Positions 18,345-25,676 of a stretch of 55,792 bases of DNA are shown here, piece by piece. The DNA lies in IMG/VR virus record IMGVR_UViG_3300045885_000606, positions 1 to 55,792 of that record; one strand, 5' to 3'. Position numbers and translations under genes: made by a program. Origin of the DNA: a virus. Position 1 is the stretch's first letter. Each line of letters starts with the position of its first letter. A model generated the notes under the pieces. That model ran no database searches. It was given only the letters and a program-made list of their open reading frames with translations, and was not told the DNA's origin.

Positions 18345-19409
18345 ATGGAAACGACCCTGGAAACGACTGACACCCGGAAGCGTGTCAGCACCCTGACGCC
18401 CTTTGAAACCACCCTGATGCATAGTCGGGAGAGTCTCCGCACCATCTTTGATGATCGCAACAAAGCCGATGCGCTCCTGGTAGAGATCGTCAACTGTGCC
18501 AGGAAGACGCCGGCGCTGATGCGCTGCACGCCAGAAAGCATCATCCACGCGGTCGTCCGCCTGGCCTCGCTGGACCTCAACCCGGCCATCCCGGCTGAAG
18601 CGTACCTCGTCCCCTACGGCACCGAGTGTACCCTTATCTACGGGTACGGTGGACTCCGGAAGCTGGTCCTGCGCTCGCCAGATGTGGTCGATGTCTTTGC
18701 CGAGACGGTGCACCAAAACGACGTCTTCCGGCAGGCAGAAACCCCGATCGTGCTGCCCTACCACCAGCTTCCACCGCCGCAAAACGATGGCACGTTTACC
18801 CCCAGGGGCCGTGCCGTGGGCTATTACGCTGCAGCCCTCCTGCGCTCGGGGAACTGGCGCGTCGTGGTGCTCTCCAAAGCGGAAGTCGATGGCCACAGAC
18901 AGCGCTACTCTGCAGCAGCACAGGGGAAATTCTGGGCCGATAACCGCCCTGACCTGGAAGGTCTCACCAACTTTGACAAGATGGCGATGAAGACCTGCCT
19001 GAGAGAGTTGTGCTCCCCACGGAAGCTCTCCATCTCGGCGGAAATTACCCAGGCCCTGGAAGGTGAAGAAGCCATCCTGAGACAGCCGGCCGCGGTGCAC
19101 CAGGGCTACGACCGGGAGACTGGCACCCGCACCCCGCCGCCCTTGAGTGCCCCCAGTGAGGACCTCCTGGCCGATCTGGTCTCCGACCTCGCCGGCGACC
19201 ATGCTACCCTCGAGTCGCACCTTGAGGAGGAGCGCCAGACCCCTGCGCCTCAGCGAGCTCAGAGAGCTGCGAAAGCCAGGGTGGCCCCCAGCGCTCCTTC
19301 GGCGACACCCCCAGCCCCCCCACAGAGGGCAGGGGGTGAGCCGCCCCTGCCGTTTGATCCCTCCGAATCCGCCCGGATGGATGAGGAACTGGCCTCCCAG
19401 AACGCCTGA
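18345..19409 (+). CDS. recT: RecT-family ssDNA-annealing protein
   Basis: 354 residues. Residues about 15-240 follow the RecT pattern: ALMRCTPESIIHAVVRLASL, LDLNPAIPAEAYLVPYG, TLIYGYGGLRKLVLRS, a basic beta region, then DKMAMKTCLRELCSPRKLSI. The C-terminal 110 residues are a Pro/Ala-rich, probably disordered tail. RecT promotes annealing of complementary single strands in phage recombination. No RecE-type exonuclease is adjacent. A GTGACCG/CGGTCAC stem (19418-19447) follows the gene, and then the guide-like array begins. Confidence 0.92.
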   Translation: METTLETTDTRKRVSTLTPFETTLMHSRESLRTIFDDRNKADALLVEIVNCARKTPALMRCTPESIIHAVVRLASLDLNPAIPAEAYLVPYGTECTLIYGYGGLRKLVLRSPDVVDVFAETVHQNDVFRQAETPIVLPYHQLPPPQNDGTFTPRGRAVGYYAAALLRSGNWRVVVLSKAEVDGHRQRYSAAAQGKFWADNRPDLEGLTNFDKMAMKTCLRELCSPRKLSISAEITQALEGEEAILRQPAAVHQGYDRETGTRTPPPLSAPSEDLLADLVSDLAGDHATLESHLEEERQTPAPQRAQRAAKARVAPSAPSATPPAPPQRAGGEPPLPFDPSESARMDEELASQNA

Positions 19410-19526: not shown

Positions 19527-19976
19527 GAGCGCAGCCCCTTACCCAGAGGATCCCGGCAATGGCGAGCGCAGCCGGCTATCCAGAGGACCCCGAAGCACAG
19601 GAGCGCAGCCGTGTCATGGAGGACCACGGACAAGAGAGCGCAGCCGTTTGAAGGGAGGATCCCGCGGGAAATGAGCGCAGCCGCAAAGGGAGAGACCCCC
19701 GGAATCCTGGAGCGCAGCCGCTGAGAAGACAATCCCGACGTACCGAGCGCAGCCGGGATATACGAGGACCACGAAAGAGGATAGCGCAGCCGCAATGGTA
19801 GAGAAACCCCAATAGATACGAGCGCAGCCGAATGACAAGAGTATCCCGAGAGGAGAGGAGCGGAGCCGAAAGCCCCGAGAACCCCGATGTGACGGAGCGG
19901 AGCCGTATCGAATGAGCATCCCGTGAAAAGAGCGCAGCCGCTGGACGCGAGAATCCCGCTGTCCATGAGCGCCCAG
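19527..19976 (+). repeat. TIGR-like guide array 1 (12 units)
   Basis: Twelve tandem units start at 19527, 19564, 19601, 19636, 19673, 19710, 19745, 19782, 19820, 19858, 19895 and 19930, with a degenerate end at 19967. Each is [GAGCGCAGCC]-A spacer-[GAGNAYCCCG]-B spacer. A spacers are 8-9 nt (mostly 9, nearly all starting with G); B spacers are 6-9 nt (mostly 8). The period is 35-38 bp. The two conserved blocks keep their order in every unit while both spacers change, unlike CRISPR (one repeat, long spacer) or iterons. This matches tandem interspaced guide RNA arrays, whose processed RNAs are about 36 nt with two short spacers. Block variants: GAGCGGAGCC in units 10-11, TAGCGCAGCC in unit 8. 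The transcribed strand cannot be fixed from sequence. Confidence 0.88.
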
Positions 19977-19988
19977 AAGGAGCATCCT

Positions 19989-22130
19989 ATGCCCGTCCCA
20001 GACATTGCCCTGGTTCCCGAGGAGTACATCGACTTTGATCTGACCTTACGCCTGGATCGTGATCTCGCCATCGCGGCCGGGAACTTGACCCCCCTCCAGC
20101 AGCGCTTCCTGGTGGATATGTACTACCAGGTGCAGGAGTCACGCAAGTCTGCCGCCAACCAGCTCCGCTCTGCCAGGGAAGAACCCAACGCCTTTATCAC
20201 CATGCTGGCGGCGTATCTCATGAAGTTAGAGCGCACAATCGTCAGCGCCCTCAACAAGGCCACCGACCAGCGCCCGGTGACGGCGTGGGCGAAGCGGCAG
20301 CACGGGATTGGCCCCGTACTCACGGCGGGCTTTGCGGCGCACATCGACATCCATATCGCCAAAACGCCTAGTGCTATATGGCGCTATGCGGGACTCGACC
20401 CAACCGTCAAGTGGGCCAAGGGGCAAAAAAGACCATGGAATGCGGCCTTGAAGGTCTTGTCGTGGAAATTGGGTGATTGCTTCTGTCTTAAGCCTGATCA
20501 AACCGTAACAACCAGGCGTGGCTATATCCCCATCTGTGAGGTCGTTAGGGGAGATGAAGTTCTTACGCACCATGGGCGCTGGCAGCGAGTAACGGACGTT
20601 CTCGTGCGCGACTATGCTGGCCCACTCGTCCAACTACGGGCGTTTGGACGAGCAAATCAAGGGCCATGGGTGACGTATGGACATCCTGTCTATACCCGTC
20701 AGCGTCCAGTCATCTACTACAGCGAGGGAGAGAGGCAGCGCTGGAAACATGGAGGAAGAGTCCAAGAGCAGCGCTTTGTTCGCGCCGCACAGATGCGTGC
20801 ATTGTACGAAGAAGGCTTGTTACTGAAAGAGATTGCTACTCGCTTTGGCGTCAGCGAAGCCACAGTGTCACGAAACGTACGGTATCTCAATAATGCCTAC
20901 TCTTCTATGCCTGTAGGGTGGATCGACGCCGAAGACATCCAGCGTGGATGGGATATTTATAGCCCGACTATCCCTGCGACGGCGGCCCGTCTCATGCTAG
21001 ACTTCCGCAGTCTTCCCGACTTGCTCCCAGTAGGAGACCACCAGGTGCGCGCACGAGGGAATCGTGCTATTCCTGTTCCAGCCACGGTCGCTGTCACAGA
21101 GCAAGTTGCTCGTCTCATTGGTCTCTATCTGGCAGAAGGGCATGCGGCGTCACATCAGGGACAACTTGGCTGGTCATTCCATCTCAACGAGCGGAGGTAT
21201 CAGGAGGAGGTCAGACAGACTATCGCTGAGGTTTTTGGACTTAACAGCAGTCTCTATGAGTATGTCGCTGGTCACTCTGCCCAGGTCATCGTGGCTTCAA
21301 AGCCACTCGTTATGCTGTTTGCCCACCTCTTTGGCTCGCATGCTCACACCAAACACCTGCCACCCTCCTGGCTCGAAACACTTGGAGACGCTGAGGCCCG
21401 AGCGCTTCTTCGTGGGCTCTATGATGGCGATGGGCATGATTATCACGGCGACAAACCTGGAGAAGTCCTTACAACGGTCTCGAAGACTCTCGCCTATCAG
21501 GTGCATGATCTCGTGAGGCGTCTTGGCATGCTTGCGTCTATCAATGTGGACAAGGAGGTCTATAAAGTCCGCATACAAGGACGAGAGATTACCGCTGAAT
21601 GGACGCCTACCGGCACCTGGCATAGCGTGAAGTCCATCCCAGAAACCTTCTATGCCGGCCCAGTCTACAATCTCGAAGTGGCTAACGACGAAAGTTATGT
21701 CGCAGAAGGGATTGCTGTCCATAACTGTAAGTTCCACAACCACGAGAAGTGCTTTTACGGGCACATCTATGCCGAGCGCAAGCAACTCGAAGTGATGCGC
21801 AACGCCCGGGGAGATTTTGCCGCGTTGGCGAAAGAGACGCTCGAAGTCCGCAAGATCCAGGATAAAGAGACCCGCCTGGTCTACGAGTCCGGGAAGCTCC
21901 CGGCCGGGCGCCTGGAGCTGCGGGCCCGCCGTGTGGCCGTAAAGCTCTTTCTCGCCCACTGGTTCGAGGTCGACTTTACGCATACCTTTGGCGTGCGCCC
22001 GGAGCTGTCGTATATTCTGATGCACGATCCAGAGACGCATACCCACTACATCCCACCGCCCCTGTGGGATCCGCCCGTAGACGTGAAGGCGCCAGCACCT
22101 AAAGCCGAAGACAGTGAGCATCCCGCGTAA
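19989..22130 (+). CDS. Tas-like IS110/Nop-domain protein with intein
   Basis: 713-residue precursor. ATG 19989 is chosen for the AGAAGGAG site 7 nt upstream; the frame upstream of it is array. After removing the intein (residues 166-579) a 299-residue protein remains: an N-terminal helical half, then HGIGPVLTAGFAAHIDIH and WRYAGLDPTVKWAKGQKRPW, NAALKVLSWKLGDCF joined to CKFHNHEKCFYGHIYAERK, and a C-terminal RAxRxAVKLFLAHWF region. This is the IS116/IS110/IS902-type domain found in many phage 'transposase-like' proteins, related to the Nop domain of TIGR-associated (Tas) proteins. No HNH or RuvC domain is fused, so it would be a nuclease-less TasA-type binder. It is flanked on both sides by guide-like arrays, which strongly supports an RNA-guided role. 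No IS110 DEDD catalytic N-domain is evident. Confidence 0.82.
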   Translation: MPVPDIALVPEEYIDFDLTLRLDRDLAIAAGNLTPLQQRFLVDMYYQVQESRKSAANQLRSAREEPNAFITMLAAYLMKLERTIVSALNKATDQRPVTAWAKRQHGIGPVLTAGFAAHIDIHIAKTPSAIWRYAGLDPTVKWAKGQKRPWNAALKVLSWKLGDCFCLKPDQTVTTRRGYIPICEVVRGDEVLTHHGRWQRVTDVLVRDYAGPLVQLRAFGRANQGPWVTYGHPVYTRQRPVIYYSEGERQRWKHGGRVQEQRFVRAAQMRALYEEGLLLKEIATRFGVSEATVSRNVRYLNNAYSSMPVGWIDAEDIQRGWDIYSPTIPATAARLMLDFRSLPDLLPVGDHQVRARGNRAIPVPATVAVTEQVARLIGLYLAEGHAASHQGQLGWSFHLNERRYQEEVRQTIAEVFGLNSSLYEYVAGHSAQVIVASKPLVMLFAHLFGSHAHTKHLPPSWLETLGDAEARALLRGLYDGDGHDYHGDKPGEVLTTVSKTLAYQVHDLVRRLGMLASINVDKEVYKVRIQGREITAEWTPTGTWHSVKSIPETFYAGPVYNLEVANDESYVAEGIAVHNCKFHNHEKCFYGHIYAERKQLEVMRNARGDFAALAKETLEVRKIQDKETRLVYESGKLPAGRLELRARRVAVKLFLAHWFEVDFTHTFGVRPELSYILMHDPETHTHYIPPPLWDPPVDVKAPAPKAEDSEHPA
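20484..21725 (+). other. Intein inside the Tas-like protein
   Basis: 414 residues. Block A starts at Cys1 (20484): CLKPDQTVTT...VVRGDEVLTHHG. Block B is WVTYGHPVYTRQ. A helix-turn-helix insert follows (MRALYEEGLLLKEIATRFGV, SEATVSRNV). Two LAGLIDADG motifs follow: RLIGLYLAEGHA and ALLRGLYDGDGH. The end is YNLEVANDESYVAEGIAVHN, then a Cys +1 extein residue. All splicing residues (Cys1, block-B His, terminal HN, Cys+1) are present, so it should splice and encode an active homing endonuclease. It breaks the extein at the conserved WKLGDCF motif. Confidence 0.93.
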
Positions 22131-22460
22131 AGAGAGCGCAGCCGTCATCGCTGATCAACACGTCAAAAGTGAGCGTAGCCGAGTCTGGTGAGCATCACGT
22201 AAAACATGAGCGGAGCCGTATAGGAAGATCACCACGTCAAAGGGGAGCGTAGCCGAGAGCCCAGAGAGTCCAGTTAAACCTGAGCGCAGCCGTAGATAAG
22301 AAGAACCCCGAAGCACAGGAGCGCAGCCGCTGTGTGCTGAGAACCCCGCATGAGAGGAGCGTCAGCCGCTCTCCACGAGCATCCCGTTGGAAGAGAGCGC
22401 AGCCGAAATAGACGAGTATCCCAAAGAGATCGAGCGCAGCCGTCAGGCTGGAGCACCCCG
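22107..22460 (+). repeat. TIGR-like guide array 2 (about 9.5 units)
   Basis: Units start at 22134, 22171, 22208, 22245, 22282, 22319, 22357, 22395 and 22432. A partial unit (A spacer 22107-22115, second block 22116-22125, B spacer to 22133) lies inside the last codons and stop of the Tas-like gene. The organisation is as in array 1: first block GAGCGCAGCC with variants GAGCGTAGCC (22171, 22245), GAGCGGAGCC (22208) and GAGCGTCAGCC (22357), then a 9-10 nt A spacer, second block and 8-nt B spacer; period 37-38. Second blocks of the first three full units end CACG instead of CCCG. The B spacer AAGCACAG at 22311-22318 equals that of array-1 unit 2 (19593-19600). Confidence 0.87.
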
Positions 22461-22486
22461 TAACGCCGAAGCGACGAGGGCACCAG

Positions 22487-22510
22487 GGCGTCACCCTCGA
22501 AGGTGACGCC
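22487..22510. terminator. Stem-loop at the end of array 2
   Basis: Perfect 9-bp stem GGCGTCACC/GGTGACGCC with a 6-nt loop, 27 bp beyond the last unit and 31 bp before the stop of the convergent XRE gene. Probably a bidirectional terminator or array-end processing signal; no clear U-run. Confidence 0.6.
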
Positions 22511-22540
22511 GGTCCCACGTCCTGGCAGTGTGCCCTTGAC

Positions 22541-22984
22541 TTAGAGCCTGCCAGACTTTGCAGGAGAGATGCCCCCATGGCGTCCTGCCGGCACGCGCCC
22601 TCCCCTGAGCGCCTGATGCCCTGGCAGAGGGAGACTGAGGTTCGTGAGCGGGCCCCGCGCTTGCACGTCATTAGCAAGCTGCCTGAGGCCTGCGGCCATA
22701 CTCAGGGCTTGAGCCTCAGAGCAGGGCTGTCCCAGGGGCATTCCCTCCTCGGAGCCAAGATAGACAATAATTTCCACACTGACACCCAAAAGGGAGGCAA
22801 GCGTCAGGGCCTTGCCCAGTGAGGGGGAGTTTTCCCCAGACTCAATTTTGGCAATGTTCGTGTGGTCCGCATATCCCGCGGCCAGACCAAGCGGCCGCTG
22901 CGAGAGACCGTGTAATTCCCGCAGACGCTTGAGACCGCGACCAAAATTCTGCCGGATCACGTCGTCTGCATAGAGGGCTAACAT
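22541..22984 (-). CDS. XRE-family repressor-like protein
   Basis: 147 residues from ATG 22984 (AAGGAG upstream). Residues about 14-70 form an HTH_3 domain: GRGLKRLRELHGLSQRPLGL, AAGYADHTNIAKIESGENSP, LGKALTLASLLGVSVEIIVY. The C-terminal half is Pro/Gly-rich, with no S24 peptidase motif. It diverges from a Cro-sized XRE gene across a 165-bp gap, the arrangement of a lysogeny or early-late switch. Confidence 0.85.
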   Translation of the reverse strand: MLALYADDVIRQNFGRGLKRLRELHGLSQRPLGLAAGYADHTNIAKIESGENSPSLGKALTLASLLGVSVEIIVYLGSEEGMPLGQPCSEAQALSMAAGLRQLANDVQARGPLTNLSLPLPGHQALRGGRVPAGRHGGISPAKSGRL

Positions 22985-23149: not shown

Positions 23150-23392
23150 ATGCGGTTGGGGCTGAAAAAGGCCCGTGCCGAGCGAGGACTCACGCAGCAG
23201 GAGCTGGTGTGCGCCTTAAAGGCACGAGCGCCGCATATCAAACTGGTACGCGCCACCATTTCCAAGTACGAGCATGGCGTCTACGATATTCCCGGACGCA
23301 CGCTTGAACTCCTGGCGCAAGTTCTCGATACGCCTATGGATATTCTCTATACCACGACGCCCGGCCTTGGGCGGCAACCCCCCAGGATATGA
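23150..23392 (+). CDS. XRE-family Cro-like protein
   Basis: 80 residues. RLGLKKARAERGLTQQELVC, then TISKYEHGVYDIPGRTLELL and AQVLDTPMDILY give a compact HTH_3 domain with no extra domain, as in Cro-like regulators. ATGA overlap with the next gene. Likely the first gene of the right early operon and antagonist of the 22541-22984 repressor. Confidence 0.84.
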   Translation: MRLGLKKARAERGLTQQELVCALKARAPHIKLVRATISKYEHGVYDIPGRTLELLAQVLDTPMDILYTTTPGLGRQPPRI

Positions 23393-24350: not shown

Positions 24351-24642
24351 TAATGTCACCTTTCTCAGCGATCTGGAGAGTGCCAGGCCCAGTGCCCTCC
24401 TGGCCCATCTCGATCCCGCGCTTCTCGTCGGACACTACGTGAAGCGGGCCTTTGCCGCTCGCCGTACCCAGCGACTCGAACATATGTGGGTATTGGTTGA
24501 GCGGGTGCTTCAAGGAGGAATCCTCGAAGGCGTCCTGGATAACGATCCCGTCCTCGACGTGGGGCTTGCCTGCGGCGACAGCGTCCAGGTACACCCCAGC
24601 ACCATCGAAGCCATCTACAGAGGTCCAGGAGGTGGACGGTGA
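24331..24642 (+). CDS. Hypothetical protein
   Basis: 103 residues from ATG 24331, behind AAAAGG and a poly-C linker. Helical; no motif recognised. Its stop overlaps the ParB-like gene's start. Confidence 0.64.
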   Translation: MIHEPRSNVTFLSDLESARPSALLAHLDPALLVGHYVKRAFAARRTQRLEHMWVLVERVLQGGILEGVLDNDPVLDVGLACGDSVQVHPSTIEAIYRGPGGGR

Positions 24643-25676
24643 TCACCACATCACAGGCGCGCAAGTCCGTCAGTCGCCTGCCCAAACCAGGTGTGGCTCC
24701 ACCACAACCTCGGGTGCACCGTGTCCTGCAACTGGTCTCACACGGCATGGCGAGTGAGTTGCTGCGCGAGCACTACCCGAATCAGCGCCCCATCCGGCCG
24801 CATCATGTCCAGTATCTGCGCTATCTGATGCGCGTCGGACATTTTCGCCAGGGCTCCGAAATCCACCTCGCCGAGCTGGGCCAAAAGCGCTGGCTCCTCA
24901 ATGGCTACCATACCCTCACCGCCATTGTCCTGGAGCGCCAGCCGGTCTGGCTCTCGATTACCACCTATCGCTGTACTCAGCCTGACGAAATCTCCAGGCT
25001 CTATGACAGTTTTGACCGCAATTTGCAGCGCTCACTTGCTGATATGTACCACGCCGATCCCCTCCTGGGGGCAGAGGAATGGAGCCGGCGGCAGATTACC
25101 CAGTTAGGAGGCGCCATGCTGCCGCTCGCCCTGGGTTTTCAGTCGGAAGTCTTTGGCCGCAGCATCTACACCCTCATGCTGCGTGATGCCATCTTACGCC
25201 TGACACTCATGCATTCCTGGCTGCCGGAAGCGCGGAATGCCTTTGCCGGTCTCCAGGGCAAGCCCCAGCTTCGCGCCGCCCTCCTCCGCGCTGCAGTCTT
25301 CGCGGTCATCCTCTCCACCTACCGCTATCAGGCCGAGAAAGCACACCAGTTCTGGCCAGAAGTAGCACGCAATTCCGGCCTGAAAGTAGGTCAGCCAGCC
25401 CATCTCCTGGTGCATTTTCTCCTGACGACCACGGCCAGGCAACTGGAACCCACGCTCTATGCCCGCCATGTCGCCGCCTGCTGGAATGCGTATGTGGACG
25501 ATCGGGAGATACACCGGATTGCTGCCCGCACGATGACCCAGCCGATGCTGCTCCTCGGGACCCCCCATAGTGGCGACCGTGTCATGCAATACCTCGATCA
25601 GGCGGGCCAGGTGCATGAGCGACCAGTGCAGCGGGAGATGCCCTTAGAGAAAGTCGAGGATCAAGACGATGTTTAA
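24639..25676 (+). CDS. ParB/Srx-fold-like protein
   Basis: 345 residues from GTG 24639 (GGAGGT upstream). Residues about 45-115 follow the ParB nuclease-like layout: RPIRPHHVQYLRYLMRVGHF, IHLAELGQKRWLLNGYHTLT, AIVLERQPVWLSITTY, then a helical C-terminal domain. The GxHR/GERR-like turn is NGYHTL, seen in phage ParB-like proteins. Possible roles are DNA nicking, host takeover or segregation of a plasmid-like prophage. No ParA is present, which argues against a classical partition system. Confidence 0.76.
   Translation: MITTSQARKSVSRLPKPGVAPPQPRVHRVLQLVSHGMASELLREHYPNQRPIRPHHVQYLRYLMRVGHFRQGSEIHLAELGQKRWLLNGYHTLTAIVLERQPVWLSITTYRCTQPDEISRLYDSFDRNLQRSLADMYHADPLLGAEEWSRRQITQLGGAMLPLALGFQSEVFGRSIYTLMLRDAILRLTLMHSWLPEARNAFAGLQGKPQLRAALLRAAVFAVILSTYRYQAEKAHQFWPEVARNSGLKVGQPAHLLVHFLLTTTARQLEPTLYARHVAACWNAYVDDREIHRIAARTMTQPMLLLGTPHSGDRVMQYLDQAGQVHERPVQREMPLEKVEDQDDV

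What the first reader, a model, noticed from the sequence alone, without database searches (positions are those of the whole stretch)
20484..21725. LAGLIDADG intein in the conserved core of the Tas-like effector
A 414-residue intein with all splice residues interrupts the protein exactly after WKLGDCF, its most conserved motif. It carries two LAGLIDADG motifs plus an internal helix-turn-helix. The effector cannot fold before splicing, so splicing could gate the RNA-guided system. Alternatively the intein simply parasitises the best conserved site, as inteins usually do.
Basis: partly seen in the sequence, partly recalled or inferred. Interest (0 to 1): 0.78.

Follow-up and report, generated by a model that had tools for sequence, protein, structure and literature searches.

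The report
Mobile intein inside phage TIGR-TasA protein
A virus gene for an RNA-guided DNA-binding protein (TIGR-Tas) is interrupted by a self-splicing "protein intron" that probably carries its own gene-copying nuclease; three other viruses carry relatives of it in the same protein, so a known kind of genetic parasite lives in a newly found host where I found no earlier report of it.

Summary
Window 20484-21725 encodes a 414-residue canonical intein (Cys1, TxxH, His-Asn, Cys+1) with a two-motif LAGLIDADG endonuclease and an HTH. It sits in frame in a nuclease-less TIGR-Tas protein (TasA; NCBIfam TIGR_Tas_endo 147.8 bits, cut-off 100) between two TIGR arrays. It is an intein, not a Tas domain: 55 distinct close Tas homologues (32-48% identity) read straight through the site. 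Three other viruses carry related inteins in Tas, but 8 residues upstream (site a, L|C). The window is the only case at site b (F|C). The four inteins group together (98/89), though the endonuclease part alone does not resolve this. Their Tas hosts are scattered. One intein+/intein- pair of related viruses shows local divergence at the insertion, as homing leaves. "Cannot fold before splicing" is too strong: the predicted precursor still superposes on TasH (Z 18); only the interrupted helix is lost. Gating by splicing is untested; a rare Cys at -2 makes redox control testable. Best reading: a homing intein parasitising TasA, a new member of a known kind.

The parts
19989..22130 (+). tasA gene with intein (precursor 713 aa; spliced protein 299 aa)
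   Evidence: ORF with Shine-Dalgarno-like AGAAGGAG just upstream; TIGR_Tas_endo 147.8 bits; phrog_4285 'transposase'
19989..20483 (+). N-extein, residues 1-165 (coiled coil and first part of the Nop domain)
20484..21725 (+). intein, 414 aa, class 1, inserted at site b (F165|C166 of the spliced protein)
   Evidence: GC3 52.9% against 76% in the exteins, Fisher p 3e-10
20484..20768 (+). N-terminal splicing (Hint) segment with block A Cys1 and block B TYGH
   Evidence: Hint fold matches
20766..20891 (+). helix-turn-helix between the splicing segment and the endonuclease, aligned in the four Tas inteins
   Evidence: HTH_23 22.0 bits, below cut-off; three helices in the model; alignment
21087..21596 (+). 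LAGLIDADG homing endonuclease domain
   Evidence: matches I-DmoI Z 16.6 over 152 residues, model 369-536; LAGLIDADG_3
21114..21140 (+). first LAGLIDADG motif LIGLYLAEG (acid E218 of the intein)
21408..21434 (+). second LAGLIDADG motif LRGLYDGDG (acid D316 of the intein)
21597..21725 (+). C-terminal splicing segment, blocks F and G, ending VHN
   Evidence: TIGR01443 30.8 bits
21726..22127 (+). C-extein starting with Cys+1, then the nearly invariant Lys
20457..20462 (+). empty site a (KVL|SW): where relatives L075, L216 and L221 carry their inteins, 8 codons upstream of site b
19527..19958 (+). TIGR array 1: 12 edge repeats GAGCGCAGCCG alternating with loop repeats GAGNATCCCG, mostly 8-nt spacers, ~37-nt period
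   Evidence: edge+loop pattern 6 exact matches in the window, 0.00 expected
22116..22460 (+). TIGR array 2: 9 edge repeats; its first loop repeat lies inside the last codons of tasA

Best explanation
The segment is a canonical class 1 mobile intein in a phage TasA gene. The 713-residue precursor is translated, the intein cuts itself out using Cys1, the terminal His-Asn and Cys+1, and the exteins are joined into a 299-residue TasA that can bind the guide RNAs of the flanking TIGR arrays. Its LAGLIDADG endonuclease, probably helped by the HTH in recognising DNA, cuts intein-free tasA alleles of co-infecting related phages, and repair copies the intein in. It is a homing parasite of tasA, one branch of a small intein lineage that uses two sites 8 codons apart in one helix of the Nop domain. 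Shown here: anatomy, host identity, intein-free and intein-bearing relatives, lateral distribution, and one co-conversion-like pair. Inferred: actual splicing, endonuclease activity and its target.
For: Intein and LAGLIDADG models and splicing motifs. Precursor model: intein part matches TliVMA intein Z 19.3, PI-PkoII 19.1, PI-SceI 17.1; endonuclease part matches I-DmoI 16.6. Host TasA: TIGR_Tas_endo above cut-off; PDB sequence hits TasH 2.6e-10 and TasR 1.6e-8; an intein-free relative's model matches TasH Z 20.3, TasR 18.2, IS621 13.4. Arrays on both sides; 56 of 67 clade loci have 35-39 nt periodic arrays nearby. 55 distinct intein-free relatives cross the site. Three more intein-bearing Tas: L075, L216, L221. 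Inteins one group, 98/89, while hosts are unclustered: 4 changes against 3.9 in shuffles. L216 and intein-free L171 are related viruses, yet nucleotide identity falls to 63-67% in the ten codons on each side of the insertion (near 88/120, far 651/723, p 3e-6). GC3 52.9% against 76% in the exteins (p 3e-10).
Against: No splicing, cleavage or expression data exist. Block F Asp is Asn. No close intein-free allele of the window's own gene is known (best 48%), so the site-b insertion cannot be seen as a with/without pair. The endonuclease part alone does not group the four inteins and its two halves have different best matches, so mosaic origins are possible. The co-conversion-like pair is at site a, not in the window, and identity also dips 50-79 codons downstream in that gene.
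Confidence: 0.9

Rival explanations
1. Splicing is a regulatory gate: the precursor is held inactive until a signal (redox, temperature, phage stage) releases TasA. A candidate trigger is redox state, since Cys164 at -2 could form a disulfide with Cys1 and block the first step.
For: The insertion interrupts one helix of the Nop domain (helix 147-162 of relative L155), which is not formed in the precursor model (143-164 under pLDDT 50). Position -2 is Cys here but Ser in 52 of 55 relatives. A disulfide between an N-extein Cys and Cys1 blocks splicing of the MoaA intein (review PMC10663303). A phage intein with an altered splicing residue accumulates precursor (PMC5050341).
Against: Most related viruses have no intein in TasA, so gating is not a conserved feature. 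Two relatives with Cys164 and no intein (L214, L215) show that this Cys occurs for other reasons. Many inteins splice spontaneously. No data on conditions.
Confidence: 0.07
2. The intein is a fossil: it no longer splices or homes, and tasA is a dead gene in this virus.
For: Block F Asp is Asn; relative L075 has lost one LAGLIDADG acid (GLFEGNG); the +1 Cys at site b is not native to the family.
Against: Whole 713-codon frame open; both endonuclease acids and Cys1/TxxH/HN/Cys+1 kept; arrays kept on both sides; the extein keeps the clade's conserved residues.
Confidence: 0.05
3. The unspliced precursor is itself the working form: the endonuclease inside a nuclease-less Tas protein makes a Tas nuclease guided by tigRNA.
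For: TasA has no nuclease of its own; the precursor model keeps a TasH-like arrangement of the exteins (Z 18.0).
Against: The interrupted helix lies in the Nop domain; the residues for excision are kept; inteins of the same group sit in terminases, methylases and other unrelated proteins.
Confidence: 0.02
4. An ordinary Tas insertion domain (such as the wedge loop or the large Nop insertions of some TasR), not an intein.
For: Some Tas proteins have insertions near the site (L031, L215).
Against: Full Hint and LAGLIDADG anatomy, and homologues with identical ends in unrelated host proteins.
Confidence: 0.01

Closest known systems
TIGR-Tas systems, TasA branch (Faure et al. 2025, PMC12045711)
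   Same: Solo Nop-domain protein; alternating edge and loop repeats with short spacers on both sides of the gene; carried by a phage; fold matches TasH and TasR structures
   Different: Gene interrupted by an intein; the word intein does not occur in the main text of that paper; supplements not read
Inteins in the Tas proteins of viruses L075, L216, L221 (found here)
   Same: Same intein lineage with an HTH, same host protein, same helix
   Different: Inserted 8 residues upstream (L|C, before a Cys native in 46 of 55 relatives); the window is at F|C; L075 has lost one endonuclease acid
Phage inteins in a terminase (L222) and in C5-methylase genes (EBPR siphovirus 2 gp44, Pseudomonas phage Lana gp71)
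   Same: Same class 1 blocks including Asn in block F; LAGLIDADG endonuclease
   Different: Different host proteins and sites; L222, L229 and L008 lack the HTH
Mycobacteriophage TerL1-a and TerL1-b inteins (Kelley et al. 2016, PMC5050341)
   Same: Two insertion sites very close together in one conserved phage protein
   Different: Packaging ATPase, sites one residue apart at the P-loop
Thermococcal inteins PI-PkoII and TliVMA, yeast PI-SceI
   Same: Fold of splicing domain plus LAGLIDADG endonuclease (Z 17-19)
   Different: Cellular hosts; about 15-20% identity

Membership tests
Class 1 intein | Cys or Ser at position 1 | tested here: met
   Cys166 of the precursor, invariant in relatives
Class 1 intein | Block B T-x-x-H | tested here: met
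   TYGH
Class 1 intein | Block F Asp (supporting residue, not required in all inteins; own knowledge) | tested here: not met
   Asn (VYNLEV); Asn is invariant in the five inteins, so a variant of the whole group rather than a loss in this copy
Class 1 intein | Penultimate His, terminal Asn, Cys/Ser/Thr at +1 | tested here: met
   VHN|C
Class 1 intein | Hint splicing fold | tested here: met
   Model matches intein structures, Z 12-19
Class 1 intein | Absent in homologues that read through the site | tested here: met
   55 distinct close relatives and all wider viral homologues with full-length frames
Class 1 intein | Splices to ligated exteins | not testable with these tools
   Needs expression
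LAGLIDADG homing endonuclease | Two LAGLIDADG motifs, each with its acidic residue | tested here: met
   LIGLYLAEG and LRGLYDGDG; LAGLIDADG_3 above cut-off
LAGLIDADG homing endonuclease | Cleaves the intein-free allele | not testable with these tools
   Needs a cleavage assay
LAGLIDADG homing endonuclease | Lateral spread of the element between host alleles | tested here: inconclusive
   Inteins cluster, hosts do not, and L216/L171 show a co-conversion-like dip; but the endonuclease part alone is unresolved and no such pair exists for the window's own site
TIGR-Tas system, TasA | Nop-domain Tas protein | tested here: met
   NF052498 147.8 bits over cut-off 100; TasH/TasR sequence and fold matches
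TIGR-Tas system, TasA | No HNH or RuvC domain | tested here: met
   No nuclease domain in the exteins; N-extein starts about 30 residues before the coiled coil
TIGR-Tas system, TasA | Alternating 8-12 nt edge and loop repeats with about 9-nt spacers next to the gene | tested here: met
   Arrays at 19527-19958 and 22116-22460, repeats 11 and 10 nt, spacers mostly 8 nt
TIGR-Tas system, TasA | Array processed to about 36-nt RNAs bound by Tas | not testable with these tools
   Needs RNA sequencing

The most novel reading that the evidence does not exclude
Conditional splicing controls a TIGR-TasA system: in the window the rare Cys at -2 (C164) pairs with Cys1 under oxidation and keeps the precursor unspliced, so that the virus's RNA-guided DNA-binding protein appears only in a reducing cytoplasm or at a given stage of infection.
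Probability: 0.06. Interest if true: 0.8.

Novelty: new member of a known kind. Interest (0 to 1): 0.52.

Why it matters
It adds the TIGR-Tas effector, described in 2025, to the hosts of inteins, and shows tasA genes invaded repeatedly by one intein lineage at two neighbouring sites in one helix. That suggests tasA is exchanged between co-infecting phages. The intein positions mark a helix that must be intact in the mature protein, a natural guide for split-Tas designs, and the precursor is a directly testable case for whether splicing can control an RNA-guided system. It also warns annotators that tas genes can be missed or mis-split when an intein interrupts the family model.

Tried and rejected
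Search for near-identical intein-free alleles of the window gene: only a 100% identical contig with the same intein was found. Search with the array repeat pattern: no other virus. Self-targets of the TIGR spacers in the window or at the joined empty site: nothing beyond shuffled spacers. DNA similarity between site a and site b that could explain a jump by mis-cutting: none (9-13 of 42 bases). Tas in bacterial genomes: sampling 400 genomes of the phylum of Ornatilinea and 47 of that of the Eisenbacteria MAG gave one family-level hit each (the centre genomes themselves), the rest IS110-like scores below cut-off. One viral scan repeated an earlier one and gave nothing new. An alignment with intein-only rows (A6) put their ends into the extein and was discarded. 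Whether the 24639-25676 gene is the ParB-like partner described for some TasA loci: no family hit. The idea that the window Tas has decayed (F-Y-G for P-Y-R) was dropped: its own clade has Y-G.

Full report
What is there. The frame 19989-22130 (+) encodes 713 residues without interruption. Pfam finds LAGLIDADG_3 in two stretches (49.7 bits, cut-off 22.5); NCBIfam finds the intein C-terminal splicing region (30.8 bits, cut-off 15.6); Hint_2, Intein_splicing and several HTH models are below their cut-offs. Block A Cys, block B TYGH, His-Asn and Cys+1 are present; block F has Asn in place of the usual Asp, as do all the relatives aligned. Both LAGLIDADG acids are present (E218, D316).

What it interrupts. 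Joined, the flanks form a 299-residue protein. The gene scores 147.8 bits against NCBIfam's TIGR-Tas model (cut-off 100), and the extein finds TasH and TasR chains in the PDB by sequence (2.6e-10 and 1.6e-8). A predicted structure of the intein-free relative L155 (277 residues, pLDDT 90.7) matches TasH Z 20.3, TasR Z 18.2 and the IS621 recombinase Z 13.4. No HNH or RuvC domain is present, so by the definitions of Faure et al. (PMC12045711) this is a TasA. Arrays of 11-nt edge repeats (GAGCGCAGCCG) and 10-nt loop repeats (GAGNATCCCG) with mostly 8-nt spacers lie on both sides: 12 edge repeats at 19527-19958 and 9 at 22116-22460. A pattern of one edge and one loop repeat matches six times exactly and never in shuffles. 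Both repeats begin GAG and end CCG, the kind of covariation between edge and loop repeats that Faure et al. describe.

Intein, not domain. A scan with the window Tas and its first intein-bearing relative gave 67 viral loci, of which 55 distinct proteins at 32-48% identity run through the site without an intein. More distant Tas proteins with full-length frames also lack it. Homologues of the insert with the same ends sit in unrelated proteins: phage methylases, a plasmid-encoded methylase-like protein, a terminase and others.

Three more Tas inteins. Searches found three other viruses with an intein in Tas: L075 (IMGVR_UViG_3300025073_000048...RPWNARLKIL|423 aa|CAFKIGECFVK), L216/L220 (3300027743_000019...RPWNAGLKRL|428 aa|CWLLGESFVK) and L221 (3300036846_001526...RPWNASLKTL|421 aa|CWKIGESFVK). 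L075 has TIGR arrays on both sides. All three are at site a, aligned to L157|S158 of the window, 8 residues upstream of the window's site b. Each allele is thus the empty form of the other site. At site a the +1 residue is Cys in 46 of 55 intein-free relatives; at site b it is mostly V, M or T and never Cys, while the next residue is Lys in 54 of 55. So site a uses a native nucleophile; at site b the Cys was acquired with or before the intein.

Descent and movement. In a tree of 53 inteins the four Tas inteins form one group (98/89, bootstrap not fully settled), the window being sister to the site-a trio. The HTH is aligned in all four and absent from the nearest non-Tas inteins L222 and L229. 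The splicing part alone gives the four plus L222; the endonuclease part alone does not group them and its halves have different best matches, so mosaicism is open. The host Tas proteins do not cluster (4 changes, shuffled mean 3.9). L216 and intein-free L171 are related viruses (about 76-92% DNA identity in the longer aligned blocks), with the insertion exactly between KRL and CW. Nucleotide identity is 63% and 67% in the ten codons on each side of the insertion, against 93% and 87% further out (88/120 near, 651/723 far, p 3e-6), with almost unchanged amino acids. That is what co-conversion of flanks during homing would leave, although the gene has a second dip further downstream. The window intein has GC3 52.9% against 76% in its exteins (p 3e-10), consistent with a foreign source; L075 and L221 show the same contrast, L216 hardly. 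Site-a and site-b DNA are not alike, so how the lineage came to use two sites is unexplained. L075 has Asn at the second catalytic position (GLFEGNG), so its endonuclease is probably inactive or a nickase, as expected in the decay phase of homing elements (own knowledge).

Position and folding. Both sites lie in one helix (147-162 of L155). The surroundings of site b are more conserved than three quarters of positions (194 of 255), but WKLGDCF is not the most conserved motif (rank 48 of 254). In the precursor model (pLDDT 74, pTM 0.45) the intein part matches intein structures and the exteins still superpose on TasH (Z 18.0, 215 residues, model 33-695), while residues 143-164 are under pLDDT 50 and the helix is absent. 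The low confidence there may partly come from the alignment, in which rows carry the insert at two places, and the alignment favours the folded extein. So 'cannot fold before splicing' is too strong; 'cannot complete one helix of the Nop domain' fits.

How it works. Most likely: translation, autocatalytic excision, ligation to TasA, and spread of the gene by endonuclease cutting of intein-free tasA in co-infections. Splicing and cutting are inferred. Conserved sites are where inteins usually sit (PMC2814812), and two sites one residue apart in phage TerL (PMC5050341) are a precedent for neighbouring sites. Gating is possible but unsupported; the one concrete lead is Cys at -2, Ser in 52 of 55 relatives, which recalls the disulfide trap of the MoaA intein (PMC10663303).

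Novelty. The word intein does not occur in the main text of the TIGR-Tas paper, and in the held library the two terms meet only in a gene-therapy review; supplements and subscription journals were not searched. It is a new host for a known kind of element. Limits: the intein-bearing cases were partly found by searching with the intein, so no prevalence can be given; the only second copy of the window gene is a 100% identical contig that ends inside the intein, so the downstream junction rests on one assembly.

Noticed in passing
window 18345-19409, 22541-22984, 23150-23392: The TIGR-Tas locus lies between a RecT gene and a divergent pair of HTH_3 regulators that looks like a repressor/Cro switch, suggesting a temperate phage with TIGR-Tas next to its lysogeny control.
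   Followed up: partly
window 22116-22125: The first loop repeat of array 2 is read as part of the last codons of tasA (S-E-H-P-A), so array and gene overlap.
   Followed up: no
window 19593-19600 and 22311-22318: Arrays 1 and 2 share an identical spacer B (AAGCACAG) with near-identical flanking repeats, as if a unit had been copied between arrays.
   Followed up: no
window 22484-22530: A strong hairpin (z -2.3) follows array 2 without a T run; possible terminator.
   Followed up: partly
window 24639-25676: 345-aa protein of phrog_5931, unknown function, no Pfam or NCBIfam hit; candidate for a ParB-like partner as described for some TasA loci.
   Followed up: partly
L075:2548-4743: Second LAGLIDADG motif reads GLFEGNG: catalytic acid lost, endonuclease probably inactive, while splicing residues are kept.
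   Followed up: yes
L219:4000-4816: A clade tas gene appears broken into three frames; pseudogene or sequencing error.
   Followed up: no
L222:1579-4335: Closest non-Tas relative of the intein's N-terminal splicing segment (57% over 74 residues) sits in a terminase large subunit, without the HTH; the same junctions occur in four contigs (L222-L225).
   Followed up: partly
L214, L215: Intein-free clade members with extra insertions in Tas and a Cys at the position equivalent to C164 of the window.
   Followed up: no
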